A stretch of DNA of 64,000 nucleotides from Myxococcales bacterium (GTDB taxonomy: Bacteria > Myxococcota_A > Polyangia > Polyangiales > Houyiibacteriaceae). A program made the translations under genes and the position numbers. Each line of letters begins with the position of its first letter. Within the stretch, counting starts at the first letter, position 1. Under the pieces are notes generated by a model. That model made no database searches. It saw nothing but the letters and a program-made list of their open reading frames with translations, and was not told the DNA's origin. The stretch lies in assembly GCA_029861865.1 (NCBI GenBank), contig JAOTYL010000001.1:320066-384065 (forward strand), written 5' to 3'. Below are positions 38,822 through 48,608 of the stretch, piece by piece.

Positions 38822-39643
38822 CTACGGAGCCGAAAGGGTAGTGATTGCCCCTTCAGTCGTCGGCAACAGCGCGTAAATCGCAGGTACCAACTCTGCGCTC
38901 GTGTCGGTGTCGACGGCGACGAGAAGCGTCACGACGCCGGCTGTCACGGGAGCTGCGAGCGGCCCCACGTCGAGATCGTCATTGGCATCGGTGCCTCCGC
39001 CTGACGCCGCGGTATCGACGTCAAAGCCGATGTTGACCGTACCCTCCGCAAGGTCGAGCGGACCCGCGGTTGCACCGAATGCGAGCTCGTCGACGACCAC
39101 AGCGCTGGCATCGGTCACGATGTCGACGGGATCAACAGCTGCCGCGTCGGCACCATGGCCTACGAGCACCCGACCATTGCCCGCTGCCAAACCCATGAGA
39201 CTTTCGTCGAAGAGTAGGACATTGACCGGCACAGCGACCGCGCTATCGCGATACGCGACGACCGTGAATATCCCGCCAGCTGGCAGAGTGGCGGGCACGT
39301 CGAGGAGAGAGGTCGTGGTCCCCGTGGCCGCAACCCCGAAAACGTAGTCACCTGCAGGCAGGCTCACATAGCCCGTACTGTTTCCGAATTGCAGGTTCTC
39401 GATTCCCGACGCCGCACCATCGAGCAGGATATCGACGCCGGTGTTGCCGGCCGACGGAACCTCGGGCGCCAAATGGGCTACACGAACCATTGCCATCCCG
39501 TCGCTGCCGCCTGAGCCGCCGGTTCCACCGGTTGCGCCAGCGCCTCCGGTACCGCCGGTACCGTCCACGGCGTCGTCCCCACAGCCAACCAGGGCGAAAC
39601 CAAGCGCCGCCAAGATTGCCACACCAAATGTTGCTTTGTTCAT
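38822..39643 (-). CDS. DUF4397 lipoprotein with Gly/Thr linker
   Basis: LVGCGDDAVDGTGGTGGAGATGGTGGSGGSDGMAMVRVAHLAPEVPSAGNTGVDILLDG. Confidence 0.82.
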   Translation of the reverse strand: MNKATFGVAILAALGFALVGCGDDAVDGTGGTGGAGATGGTGGSGGSDGMAMVRVAHLAPEVPSAGNTGVDILLDGAASGIENLQFGNSTGYVSLPAGDYVFGVAATGTTTSLLDVPATLPAGGIFTVVAYRDSAVAVPVNVLLFDESLMGLAAGNGRVLVGHGADAAAVDPVDIVTDASAVVVDELAFGATAGPLDLAEGTVNIGFDVDTAASGGGTDANDDLDVGPLAAPVTAGVVTLLVAVDTDTSAELVPAIYALLPTTEGAITTLSAP

Positions 39644-39662
39644 CTTCTTTTCCCTCCGACCC

Positions 39663-39695
39663 GTCTAAGTTATGTCTAGGTCTTGTCGAGCTATC
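39663..39695 (-). promoter_or_regulatory. candidate CarH/LitR operator array A (three 11-bp repeats, oriented to the DUF4397 gene)
   Basis: Plus strand GTCTAAGTTAT|GTCTAGGTCTT|GTCGAGCTATC; core GTCTA/GTCTA/GTCGA at exactly 11-bp spacing. Confidence 0.55.
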
Positions 39696-39772
39696 TACGG
39701 CAGAGTCAGGAGCGTGTCAAGCAGGTGCTTCTGATTTTCTTGCCTCTTCGCTTGATCGGAAGGATCACTGGG

Positions 39773-39805
39773 TATAGACAACTATTAGACAGGTTTTATA
39801 CGGAA
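39773..39805 (+). promoter_or_regulatory. candidate CarH/LitR operator array B (three 11-bp repeats, oriented to the MerR-B12 gene)
   Basis: TATAGACAACT|ATTAGACAGGT|TTTATACGGAA; core TAGAC/TAGAC/TATAC at exactly 11-bp spacing. Confidence 0.6.
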
Positions 39806-39830: not shown

Positions 39831-40718
39831 ATGGCGGATGAGGCGAAATATCGGGTCGGGATGGTCTCGAAGATGACGGGCCTCTCGACCCATACGCTCC
39901 GAATGTGGGAGAAGCGCTACGCTGCCGTGCTGCCAAAGCGCACCGAGGCGGGGGGCCGCCTCTACACAGACGCCGACGTCGAGAGGCTTCGCCTCCTCCA
40001 CAAGCTGGTCGGGAGTGGTCATTCGATTGGCGGCATTGCAAAGCTGCCTGATGGGGACCTCAGGCACATGGCCGCTGCTTTTCCAGCACCCTCGACCCAG
40101 CCGGCCTTGCGACACCTTCCCGAAGTCCGTGAGCGCGTCCTTGCGGCCATCGAGCACCTTCGAACCGACGAGGCCGAGCAGATATTGTCGCGGGCTGCCC
40201 TGAGCACCGAGCCGACCGATTTTTTAAAGGAGGTCGTCGGTCCGATTCTCGTCGAGGTCGGTGACCGCTGGGAGCGGGGTGAGCTTCGCATCGCACACGA
40301 GCACGCCTGTTCGACGGTGATGCGCGGCCTCCTTTTTTCGCTGATGCGCCTTTACCCAACTAACGACGCCAGGCGCCGCGTCGTGGTGGCAACGCCAGCC
40401 AAGGAGGATCACGAGCTTGGTGCGCTCATGGTCGCCATGCTCGCAGCGATGCATGGCTGGAACGTGCTCTATCTTGGCCCAAATCTGCCGGCCAAAGAGA
40501 TCGCCTACGCGGTCACCGACACCGACGCGCAGCTCCTGATGCTCTCGATCACAAACCTGAAGCCTAAGGACTCCGAACGAGAGATCGCCGCGATCGAGAG
40601 CGCGCTATCCGAACGCGTGAGGATCCTGGTGGGCGGGCGGGCAGCCACGGCGCCTCGCGACAGCCGAGTGCAGATCCAGCAGGACCTCGCGCTCGTGGAA
40701 GCCGCCCTCAGCGGTTAG
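39831..40718 (+). CDS. MerR-type regulator with cobalamin-binding (CarH/LitR-like) photosensory domain
   Basis: MerR HTH VGMVSKMTGLSTHTLRMWEKRYAAVLPKRTEAGGRLYTDADVERL; Wx9EH motif W-ERGELRIAH-EH; B12-binding EDHELG. Confidence 0.88.
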   Translation: MADEAKYRVGMVSKMTGLSTHTLRMWEKRYAAVLPKRTEAGGRLYTDADVERLRLLHKLVGSGHSIGGIAKLPDGDLRHMAAAFPAPSTQPALRHLPEVRERVLAAIEHLRTDEAEQILSRAALSTEPTDFLKEVVGPILVEVGDRWERGELRIAHEHACSTVMRGLLFSLMRLYPTNDARRRVVVATPAKEDHELGALMVAMLAAMHGWNVLYLGPNLPAKEIAYAVTDTDAQLLMLSITNLKPKDSEREIAAIESALSERVRILVGGRAATAPRDSRVQIQQDLALVEAALSG

Positions 40719-45918: not shown

Positions 45919-46995
45919 ATGACAAGATCTTCATTTCAAGCTGCGGCCATGCTTCGCCATGCTCCGCTCAAGCTCGTGCTGCGGATGGCAGAGGCCGGTG
46001 TGTTTCCGGACGGGCTTCTCAGGTGGGGCACCCGGCATCTGCTGAGACGGCGCCTACGAGAGAGCGTGTGGGGCGATTCGGAGCCTCGGAAACAACAGGA
46101 GAATGATCTCATCGATCGCCTCGCTGCCGGACCGATTGCGATCGCTGCGTATGCAGCGAACGAGCAACACTACGAGGTGCCGGCTCCCTTCTTCGAGCGC
46201 GTGCTCGGGCCGCGACTGAAATACAGCTGTTGCTACTGGGACGCCGACACGCGAGATCTGGCGGCTGCGGAAGAGGCGATGTTGGATTTGACCGCGTCGC
46301 GGGCCAGCATCGAAGATGGCATGCGCATTCTCGATCTTGGCTGCGGATGGGGCTCCTTCTCGCTATGGGCGGCGGAGCGCTTTCCGAAAGCTCGAATCCT
46401 GGCCATGTCCAATTCTCGCCTGCAGCGCGACTTCATCCAGGGGCGGGCCGCCGCGCAAAGGCTCGGAAACGTTCGCGTGCAGACGGCGAACATCAACGAT
46501 TTCGACCCAGGCGAAGAGTTCGACGTCGTGGTGTCTATCGAGATGATGGAGCACGTGCGCAACCATCGGGCGCTGTTCGAACGCATCGCCAGTTGGCTAG
46601 CGCCCGGCGGCTCGGCGTTTGCCCACATCTTCTGTCATCGGTCCCACGCCTATACCTATGAAATCGAGGACACGACCGACTGGATGGCAAGGAACTTTTT
46701 CACCGGCGGCATGATGCCGTCCGAGTCGCTCTTCCACCACTACCAGGACCATCTCGTCTTGCGCGAGCAGTGGCGCGTCGATGGGAAGCACTACCACAAG
46801 ACATGCGATGCGTGGCTCGAAAGGCTAGACAGAAGTCGAGACTCGGTCCTACGTATCCTCGCGGACGGATATGGAGGGGAAGGCGTGCGCTGGTTTCATC
46901 GGTGGCGACTCTTCTTCATCGCGTGCTCCGAGCTCTTCGCGTACAGAGGCGGCACCGAGTGGTTTGTGGCCCACTACCGTTGGGAGCTGCGATGA
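45919..46995 (+). CDS. cyclopropane-fatty-acyl-phospholipid synthase-like methyltransferase
   Basis: KYSCCYWDADTRDLAAAEEAMLDLTASRASIEDGMRILDLGCGWGSFSLWAAERFPKARILAMSNSRLQRDFI; SIEMMEHVRNHRALFERI. Confidence 0.88.
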   Translation: MTRSSFQAAAMLRHAPLKLVLRMAEAGVFPDGLLRWGTRHLLRRRLRESVWGDSEPRKQQENDLIDRLAAGPIAIAAYAANEQHYEVPAPFFERVLGPRLKYSCCYWDADTRDLAAAEEAMLDLTASRASIEDGMRILDLGCGWGSFSLWAAERFPKARILAMSNSRLQRDFIQGRAAAQRLGNVRVQTANINDFDPGEEFDVVVSIEMMEHVRNHRALFERIASWLAPGGSAFAHIFCHRSHAYTYEIEDTTDWMARNFFTGGMMPSESLFHHYQDHLVLREQWRVDGKHYHKTCDAWLERLDRSRDSVLRILADGYGGEGVRWFHRWRLFFIACSELFAYRGGTEWFVAHYRWELR

Positions 46996-48608
46996 ATCGT
47001 CTGCTGGTGCTCCTCGGCAACCAGTTGTTTCCAAACGAGCTCATTGAGCAGACCGAGCCGGACGTCGTCTTCATGGCGGAGTCTGACAAGATCTGCCGCC
47101 AGTACAGGGCTCACCAGCACAAGCTCGTCCTTGTCCTTAGCTCCATGCGTTCAAAAGCCGAAGCGCTTCGCGAGGCTGGACACGAAGTGGTCTACACACG
47201 ACTGGAAGATGCGGGAGGCGAGTCCTTCTCGTCGATGCTGTCGCAACACCTCTCGAAGCAATCGTACGAAGAGGTCGCCTGTTTCGAGACTGAATCGCCT
47301 CGCATGGATCAGCGGCTGGAAGCGGTATGTTCCGCGCACGGCCTGAAGCGGGCTCTCCTGCCGAGTCCTATGTTCGTCACGAGCCGTGAAGCATTCGACC
47401 GGTATCGTGAGAGCCATAAGCGGCTCTTCATGGCCGATTTTTATCGTTGGCAGCGAAAGCGGATGGATATCCTGCTCGATGACCAAGGCAAGCCGGTGGG
47501 AGGCCGTTGGAGCTACGCGGACTTTTCGCGTTTTGGGGAAATGCTGCGAATCGTCCCGGACTTGGTCAGGCTTCGTGCCTACAAGAGTCTCTACAATCTA
47601 GTGTCGCACTACATCGAGGACGATGCGCTCCGGCAGGTGTTCAGCTTCCAGCCCTTGCTCATAGGCGGGAACCCCTTCCGAGTGCCAGCGATTTATCTAC
47701 TGATTCACTGGCTGGAACGGAAATGGGGCATCCACTTCGCGCTAGGGGGCACCGCTGCCATCGTGCGAGGATTGACGCGTTTGCTCGAGGAGGTCGGAGT
47801 CGATCTACGGCTCAACGCGCCTGTGGAGCGGATCGAAGTCGTGAACGGCCGGAGCAAGGGCGTGCTGCTCGATGATCAAACGTTCCTCGAAGCGGACATC
47901 ATCGTCTCAAACGCCGACCCGGCGATGGTCTATACGAAGTTGATTCATTCCTCGGCGCGCCGAAAGCATTCTGACGCTTCGGTTGCTCGCAGGCGCTATT
48001 CGATGAGCCTTTTCGTCGGCTACTTCGGTACGAAAAAGACCTATCCAGACGTTGCGCACCACTCGATCTTGCTTGGCCCGCGGTATCGCGAGCTCCTCAC
48101 CGACATCTTCGACCGCAAGAAGCTTGCCGACGATTTCTCGCTTTATCTGCACGCCCCCACGCGCACTGATCCAAGCCTCGCGCCGTCGGGCGGAGAGAGC
48201 TTCTATGTGCTGTCTCCGGTTCCGAATCAGGAAAGCGGTATCGATTGGGAGATTGAAGGCGCACGTTACATGGACCGCATCCTCGATGCCCTCGACAGGC
48301 ATCACCTTCCGGGCCTCCGCGACAACCTGGTCACGCAGTTCCACGTCGATCCGACGTACTTCGAGACCGAGCTTCGTTCGTACCAAGGGGCGGCGTTTGG
48401 TCTGGAGCCCACGTTGCGGCAGTCGGCCTACTTTCGTTTTCACAACATGTCCGAGGACATCGAAGGGCTCTACTTCGTCGGCGCAGGGGTGCATCCAGGC
48501 GCGGGCCTTCCCGGCGTGCTCTCGTCCGCGAAGGTGTTGGAAAGGGTCGTCCCGCAACGCGCGACCGAGGGTCGGTCGGTCTCGGTACCCGAGGCGGTGG
48601 CGGTATGA
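46992..48608 (+). CDS. chimeric protein: photolyase/cryptochrome-related (DPRP) N-terminus fused in frame to C-terminal part of phytoene desaturase CrtI
   Basis: aa 1-~175 MNRLLVLLGNQLFPNELIEQTEPDVVFMAES...LFMADFYRWQRKRMDILLDDQGKPVGGRWSY; aa ~178-538 FSRFGEMLRIVPDLVRLRAYKSLYNLVSHYIEDDALRQVFSFQPLLIGGNPF...GLYFVGAGVHPGAGLPGVLSSAKV; 4-nt overlaps with both neighbours. Confidence 0.82.
   Translation: MNRLLVLLGNQLFPNELIEQTEPDVVFMAESDKICRQYRAHQHKLVLVLSSMRSKAEALREAGHEVVYTRLEDAGGESFSSMLSQHLSKQSYEEVACFETESPRMDQRLEAVCSAHGLKRALLPSPMFVTSREAFDRYRESHKRLFMADFYRWQRKRMDILLDDQGKPVGGRWSYADFSRFGEMLRIVPDLVRLRAYKSLYNLVSHYIEDDALRQVFSFQPLLIGGNPFRVPAIYLLIHWLERKWGIHFALGGTAAIVRGLTRLLEEVGVDLRLNAPVERIEVVNGRSKGVLLDDQTFLEADIIVSNADPAMVYTKLIHSSARRKHSDASVARRRYSMSLFVGYFGTKKTYPDVAHHSILLGPRYRELLTDIFDRKKLADDFSLYLHAPTRTDPSLAPSGGESFYVLSPVPNQESGIDWEIEGARYMDRILDALDRHHLPGLRDNLVTQFHVDPTYFETELRSYQGAAFGLEPTLRQSAYFRFHNMSEDIEGLYFVGAGVHPGAGLPGVLSSAKVLERVVPQRATEGRSVSVPEAVAV

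What the first reader, a model, noticed from the sequence alone, without database searches (positions are those of the whole stretch)
39663..39805. Two oppositely oriented arrays of three 11-bp repeats: candidate light-controlled operators
In the 187-bp divergent gap between the DUF4397 lipoprotein gene and the MerR-B12 gene there are two arrays, each with three repeats at exact 11-bp period. Array A (minus orientation) has cores TAGAC/TAGAC/TCGAC; array B (plus orientation) has TAGAC/TAGAC/TATAC. Each array points toward its own gene. CarH from Thermus is known to bind tandem 11-bp repeats as a tetramer, one repeat per contacting DNA-binding domain. Array B also fits TAGACA-N16-TATACG as a promoter, so repressor and RNA polymerase would compete. 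This would make the DUF4397 lipoprotein a light-regulated gene.
Basis: partly seen in the sequence, partly recalled or inferred. Interest (0 to 1): 0.75.

Follow-up and report, generated by a model that had tools for sequence, protein, structure and literature searches.

The report
Paired CarH light-switch operators, myxobacterial genus
Two short DNA repeat arrays between a vitamin-B12 light-sensor gene and a lipoprotein gene match the known landing sites of the sensor, recur at light-protection genes across related bacteria, and are absent where the sensor is absent, so they are very probably real light-switch sites and mostly a new instance of a known system.

Summary
Array A (39662-39689, minus strand) reads TCGACA/TAGACA/TAGACG and array B (39775-39802, plus strand) reads TAGACA/TAGACA/TATACG, both at exact 11-bp period. 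Each is two full copies plus one degenerate copy of the published CarH repeat (TnnACA). They are the two best sites in the window by far (score 27.2 each; next 8.9). The strict triple pattern occurs at only one other place in the 4.2-Mb genome.

Array B fronts carH in 10/10 genus orthologues. Array A fronts the DUF4397 lipoprotein gene in nine genomes, also where that gene lies away from carH. The same repeats front an RpoH-like sigma gene in 12/13 carH-bearing genomes and 0/5 carH-less ones. In the nearest relative they front the carotenoid operon, the canonical CarH target. TAGACA-N5-TAGACA occurs 29 times in 13 carH+ genomes and never in 6 carH- genomes.

Best explanation: AdoCbl-CarH represses carH, DUF4397 and the sigma gene in the dark, and light releases it. 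Binding and light response are inferred. The proposed TATACG -10 element is not conserved. The window genome apparently lost the carotenoid promoter by a 7.5-kb deletion. New member of a known kind; the sigma and lipoprotein targets look new.

The parts
39662..39689 (-). Array A: three 11-bp-period repeats TCGACA/TAGACA/TAGACG, candidate CarH operator of the DUF4397 gene, placed just downstream of its presumed -10 element
   Evidence: conserved in nine genomes before DUF4397
39775..39802 (+). Array B: three 11-bp-period repeats TAGACA/TAGACA/TATACG, candidate autoregulatory operator of carH; repeat 1 coincides with the presumed -10 position
   Evidence: first two repeats present in 10/10 genus orthologues
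39692..39720 (-). Candidate DUF4397 promoter TTGACA-N17-TAGATA
   Evidence: TTGAC at similar distance before the array in relatives; the strict consensus scan did not flag it
39752..39757 (+). Candidate carH -35 element TTGATC, 17 nt before repeat B1
   Evidence: TTGAT[CT] at the same spacing in most orthologues, TTGCCC in L037; not flagged by the strict scan
39831..40718 (+). carH: MerR DNA-binding domain plus B12-binding domains, 295 aa, the presumed cognate repressor and photoreceptor
   Evidence: motifs W-x9-EH and EDHELG-x41-SIT-x26-GG read from the sequence
38822..39643 (-). DUF4397 lipoprotein gene (273 aa, lipobox LVGC), divergent target of array A

Best explanation
Arrays A and B are operators of the CarH-type repressor encoded at 39831-40718. 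In the dark, AdoCbl-bound CarH oligomerises and places one DNA-binding domain on each of two or three 11-bp repeats. On array B it covers the -10 region of its own promoter (autoregulation). On array A it covers the start site of the DUF4397 lipoprotein gene, just downstream of TTGACA-N17-TAGATA. Light breaks the Co-C bond, the oligomer falls apart and both promoters are released. The same repressor holds down a third promoter, that of an RpoH-like sigma gene about 165 kb away on the same contig (G000:C6:194104-194937), so light would also raise a sigma factor. Shown here: the repeats, their spacing, conservation, placement and co-occurrence with carH. Inferred: binding, AdoCbl-dependence, light release and derepression.
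For: (1) The repeats fit the footprinted CarH consensus nnnnTnnACAn, and operators of two full plus degenerate repeats are bound by myxobacterial CarH (PMC9304148). (2) Uniqueness in window and genome. (3) Array B in 10/10 orthologues; array A in nine genomes, including DUF4397 genes not beside the orthologous carH (G005:C135, G006:C701, G011:C89, G013:C124), although DUF4397 identity falls to about 43-47%. (4) TAGACA-N5-TAGACA: 29 sites in 13 carH+ genomes, 0 in 6 carH- genomes; the background form TAGACG-N5-TAGACG gives 5 and 6. (5) A two-repeat array 73-78 nt before the sigma start in 12/13 carH+ and 0/5 carH- genomes, Fisher p = 7e-4. (6) In the nearest relative the best array (29.4) lies between lycopene cyclase-crtE-crtI-crtB and a divergent FAD oxidoreductase, the canonical kind of CarH target; similar sites front lycopene cyclase/FAD oxidoreductase, SDR and cyclopropane-synthase-family genes in other relatives. 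(7) CarH carries Wx9EH and the full B12 motif and matches T. thermophilus CarH. It is the only full-length MerR-B12 match listed for the window genome.
Against: No binding, footprint or light data exist for this protein. It has Glu where T. thermophilus CarH has His132 and RMWEKRY for RxWERRY, so photochemistry or base preference may differ. It scores below the NCBIfam CarH equivalog cut-off (131 vs 400 bits). G008 has carH but no sigma array. Genomes are related, and the carH- set represents perhaps two independent losses (tree with few well-supported forks). Most relatives are draft assemblies. The strict sigma-70 scan finds no promoter in the gap.
Confidence: 0.83

Rival explanations
1. The arrays are CarH operators, but the protein works here mainly as an AdoCbl (B12-status) switch with weak or altered light response, because the residue equivalent to His132 is Glu.
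For: Alignment to T. thermophilus CarH shows WERGELRIAHEH against WHRGEIGVAEEH.
Against: W and EH of Wx9EH and the lower-ligand histidine motif are intact. The locus and regulon are light-protection genes: class II photolyase and crtD-like genes beside carH, and the crt operon in the nearest relative. The literature says many, not all, CarH proteins carry that His.
Confidence: 0.1
2. The sites belong to another DNA-binding protein, such as a second MerR-B12 paralogue or an unrelated factor lost together with carH.
For: Some relatives carry a second MerR-B12 gene beside FAS1 lipoprotein and Rieske oxygenase genes with a similar array, and in G005 DUF4397 is divergent from a paralogue of about 32% identity.
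Against: The window genome has no second full-length MerR-B12 gene among the listed matches, yet keeps both arrays. Array B sits before carH in every orthologue examined, and the repeat matches the known CarH consensus.
Confidence: 0.05
3. Array A is conserved because it is the transcribed leader of DUF4397 mRNA (an RNA element), not an operator.
For: It lies downstream of the likely -10 element, and its spacers (AAGACC, TRACT) are more conserved than those of other arrays.
Against: The leader folds no better than shuffles (z = -0.17). The same 11-bp repeats occur at non-homologous promoters, including that of carH on the other strand.
Confidence: 0.02

Closest known systems
CarH of Myxococcales (Sorangium cellulosum, Haliangium ochraceum, Cystobacter) and its Pcrt operators (PMC9304148)
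   Same: 11-bp TnnACA repeats, two full plus degenerate copies, overlap with -35/-10, carH in a divergent intergenic region, AdoCbl-dependent repression of carotenoid genes
   Different: Two separate opposed arrays, one per divergent gene, rather than one shared site. Predicted targets include a DUF4397 lipoprotein and an RpoH-like sigma gene; the paper deals with carotenogenesis targets.
Thermus thermophilus CarH (PDB 5C8D/5C8E) and Bacillus megaterium CarH
   Same: MerR domain plus B12 domains, Wx9EH, D/ExHxxG, three or four tandem 11-bp repeats
   Different: Glu instead of His132; repeats mostly TnGACA rather than TnTACA (the latter from general knowledge); oligomeric state here unknown
Class II LitR/PplR of Pseudomonas and MerR/ChrR of Vibrio cholerae
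   Same: Light-inducible set with photolyase, SDR, FAD oxidoreductase and fatty-acid-modifying enzymes such as UfaM or CFA synthase (PMC9758184, PMC5241685)
   Different: Class II LitR uses TGTACA-N12-TGTACA sites and a LOV partner rather than direct AdoCbl sensing
LitR-LitS of Streptomyces (from general knowledge, not checked here)
   Same: B12-type repressor controlling a sigma factor gene
   Different: LitS is an ECF sigma; here the predicted target is an RpoH-like sigma

Membership tests
CarH photoreceptor/repressor | MerR DNA-binding domain followed by B12-binding four-helix and Rossmann domains | tested here: met
   Pfam PF13411, PF02607, PF02310 above cut-off
CarH photoreceptor/repressor | Wx9EH motif that contacts the adenosyl group | tested here: met
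   WERGELRIAHEH in the translation, aligned to T. thermophilus CarH
CarH photoreceptor/repressor | D/ExHx2G-x41-SxT/V-x22-27-GG B12-binding motif | tested here: met
   EDHELG-x41-SIT-x26-GG counted in the translation; definition
CarH photoreceptor/repressor | RxWERRY recognition helix | tested here: inconclusive
   RMWEKRY, one conservative change
CarH photoreceptor/repressor | His following the Trp (bis-His photoproduct); present in many CarH, not all | tested here: not met
   Glu at that place; the source says many, so it is not strictly defining
CarH photoreceptor/repressor | NCBIfam NF052513 CarH equivalog cut-off | tested here: not met
   131 bits against a cut-off of 400, E 4.9e-38, best hit by far; a model cut-off, not a biochemical defining feature
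CarH operator | Tandem 11-bp direct repeats nnnnTnnACAn, at least one or two full copies with flanking degenerate copies | tested here: met
   Two full plus one degenerate copy in each array
CarH operator | Overlap with promoter elements | tested here: inconclusive
   Array B overlaps the presumed -10; array A begins 2 nt downstream of the presumed -10; promoters are not mapped and the strict scan found none
CarH operator | AdoCbl- and dark-dependent CarH binding | not testable with these tools
   Needs purified protein

The most novel reading that the evidence does not exclude
In this myxobacterial genus CarH is not just a carotenoid repressor. It is the master switch of a photo-oxidative stress regulon that directly gates an RpoH-like sigma factor, and so a second tier of genes, together with an envelope DUF4397 lipoprotein whose operator is among the most conserved in the genus. 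It kept this role in the window genome after the carotenoid promoter itself was deleted.
Probability: 0.45. Interest if true: 0.62.

Novelty: new member of a known kind. Interest (0 to 1): 0.45.

Why it matters
CarH operators were described around carotenoid genes. Here comparative genomics of one genus predicts direct CarH control of an alternative sigma factor and of a lipoprotein of unknown function, with a natural control: genomes without carH also lack the sites, the photolyase and the DUF4397 gene. That gives DUF4397 a testable context (envelope protection against light) and suggests a B12-photoreceptor to sigma-factor cascade in Myxococcota, parallel in outline to the singlet-oxygen cascades of other bacteria. 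It also shows that the DUF4397 operator is under selection independently of the neighbouring carH.

Tried and rejected
Chance: rejected by the weight-matrix null and genome-wide pattern counts. RNA leader hairpin for array A: rejected, z = -0.17. Arrays before the photolyase/crtD operon or other window genes: none found. The TGTACA triple at G000:C13:92759 as a CarH site: not pursued; it is palindromic and lies before a sigma-54-type regulator gene. Extra two-repeat TNGACA sites in the own genome (C8, C9, C15): at control level, not claimed. Family-level relatives outside the genus (G019-G021): only degenerate two-repeat matches or none found, not informative. One family scan was called with a stretch that was not an open frame and returned nothing. 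A search for DUF4397 with light in the paper library gave nothing relevant.

Full report
OBSERVATION. The 187-bp gap between the DUF4397 lipoprotein gene (38822-39643, minus) and the MerR-B12 gene (39831-40718, plus) holds two arrays with exact 11-bp period. Array A on the minus strand is TCGACA-AGACC-TAGACA-TAACT-TAGACG (39689 down to 39662). Array B on the plus strand is TAGACA-ACTAT-TAGACA-GGTTT-TATACG (39775-39802).

CHANCE. A weight matrix made from relatives' repeats (one training array equals the window's array A core, because the nearest relative shares it) scores each array 27.2. The next best non-overlapping site in the window scores 8.9, and the highest of 30 random 64-kb sequences with the window's trinucleotide statistics scores 16.4. 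In the whole 4.23-Mb genome the strict triple pattern TNKACR at 11 bp occurs at arrays A and B and at one palindromic TGTACA triple on another contig; the reversed-pattern control gives none. Exact TAGAC-N6-TAGAC occurs three times: twice here and once before a sigma-factor gene.

THE REGULATOR. The 295-aa protein has MerR, B12-binding_2 and B12-binding domains. Its best functional match is CarH in NCBIfam (E 4.9e-38, below that model's strict cut-off) and T. thermophilus CarH in the PDB (E about 1e-26). By direct reading it has WERGELRIAHEH (the Wx9EH motif) and EDHELG-x41-SIT-x26-GG (the B12 motif), which PMC9304148 uses to assign CarH. Two departures are RMWEKRY for RxWERRY and Glu in the place of T. 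thermophilus His132.

CONSERVATION OF ARRAY B. In ten orthologous loci of the genus with upstream sequence, the first two repeats of array B are present at a similar place (33-66 nt before the start). A TTGAT[CT] element 17 bp before repeat 1 is kept in most, whereas the third repeat drifts (TACACC, TGAACA, TAAACA, TGCACG, TGGGCA).

CONSERVATION OF ARRAY A. The sequence TNGACAAGACCTAGACATRACTTAGA (one base differs in G003) is found just before the start of DUF4397 in nine genomes, even though the protein falls to about 43-47% identity; in G003 (L041) the array and start are present but the gene itself lies in a masked stretch. In L032-L035 and L040, where no array A lies upstream of carH, the neighbouring sequence is different. 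In G005, G006, G011 and G013 the DUF4397 gene with its array lies away from the orthologous carH; in G005 it is divergent from a second MerR-B12 paralogue. More distant DUF4397 copies (38-46% identity) lack it. Array A therefore belongs to DUF4397, not to carH. TTGACA-N17-TAGATA (39720-39692) precedes it and relatives have TTGAC at similar spacing, so the array would cover the start site. The leader RNA does not fold better than shuffles.

A REGULON. Across 19 genomes of the genus, TAGACA-N5-TAGACA occurs 29 times in 13 genomes with a carH orthologue and 0 times in six without one. The background form TAGACG-N5-TAGACG is even (5 and 6). Sites precede carH, DUF4397, an RpoH-like sigma gene, a FAD oxidoreductase divergent from lycopene cyclase, SDR genes, a cyclopropane-synthase-family gene (a TAGACA/TAGACG site), FAS1 lipoproteins and an epimerase-like gene. 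The sigma gene carries a two-repeat array 73-78 nt before its start in 12/13 carH+ genomes and in 0/5 carH- genomes in which it was found (Fisher p = 7e-4). The genomes are not independent: a sigma-gene tree with few well-supported forks places G009 (no carH, no array) with G000/G018, apart from the other carH- genomes, suggesting about two losses. G008, with carH but no sigma array, is an exception and groups with carH- genomes. Class II photolyase is found in 11/13 carH+ and 0/6 carH- genomes.

WHERE THE CAROTENOID TARGET WENT. In the nearest relative (G018, CarH 91% identical) the strongest array (29.4) lies between lycopene cyclase-crtE-crtI-crtB and a divergent FAD oxidoreductase. In the window this stretch is missing. 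The ORF at 46770-48608 joins the first ~250 residues of a DPRP photolyase-related protein in frame to the last two thirds of CrtI, at about 47,515. Relative to G018 about 7.5 kb is deleted, including lycopene cyclase, crtE and the array. No lycopene cyclase match was found elsewhere in the genome (without a positive control). So the canonical CarH target appears to be gone here, while carH, DUF4397 and the sigma gene keep their sites. This may be a true deletion or an assembly error.

MECHANISM. Established for other CarH proteins (PMC9304148): AdoCbl-CarH binds tandem 11-bp repeats in the dark, blocks RNA polymerase and is released by light. The sequence evidence fits that here for three promoters: carH (autoregulation), DUF4397 and the sigma gene. 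Binding, light release and the downstream role of the sigma factor are inferred. The opposed arrays, 85 bp apart, could let the divergent promoters be set separately, unlike the shared sites reported in S. cellulosum.

VERDICT. The finding is real and the interpretation largely supported. It is a new instance of the CarH operator kind; the sigma factor and DUF4397 targets are, as far as the held literature shows, not described before.

Noticed in passing
window 46770-48608 (junction near 47515): In-frame fusion of the N-terminal part of a DPRP photolyase-related protein to the C-terminal two thirds of CrtI, caused by a ~7.5-kb deletion relative to G018:C24 (about 71640-79143) that removes FAD oxidoreductase, lycopene cyclase, crtE and a CarH-type array; real deletion or misassembly.
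   Followed up: partly
L001 about 1455-1480; L084-L094; L095, L096, L099: A palindromic GTAACGTTACGTAAC-type element close upstream of the RpoH-like sigma start is kept across the genus, also in carH-less genomes, and in other families of the order; probably the site of an unknown regulator.
   Followed up: no
L082 1501-1528 (G000:C13:92759-92786): Three TGTACA palindromes at exact 11-bp period at the start of a sigma-54-type activator gene; possibly that regulator's own operator.
   Followed up: no
L151 4667-5608, L156 3262-4233: Several relatives carry a second MerR-B12 regulator (about 38-40% identical) with FAS1 lipoprotein or epimerase-like and Rieske oxygenase genes and a similar 11-bp array; a full-length paralogue was not among the listed matches in the window genome.
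   Followed up: partly
window 39831-40718, W-x9-EH region: The CarH here has Glu instead of the His (His132 in T. thermophilus) that forms the bis-His photoproduct.
   Followed up: partly
L146 (G015), L150 (G014), L086 (G010): In several relatives the sigma promoter is flanked by a second, oppositely oriented array around or upstream of its -35, so two opposed arrays embrace one promoter.
   Followed up: partly
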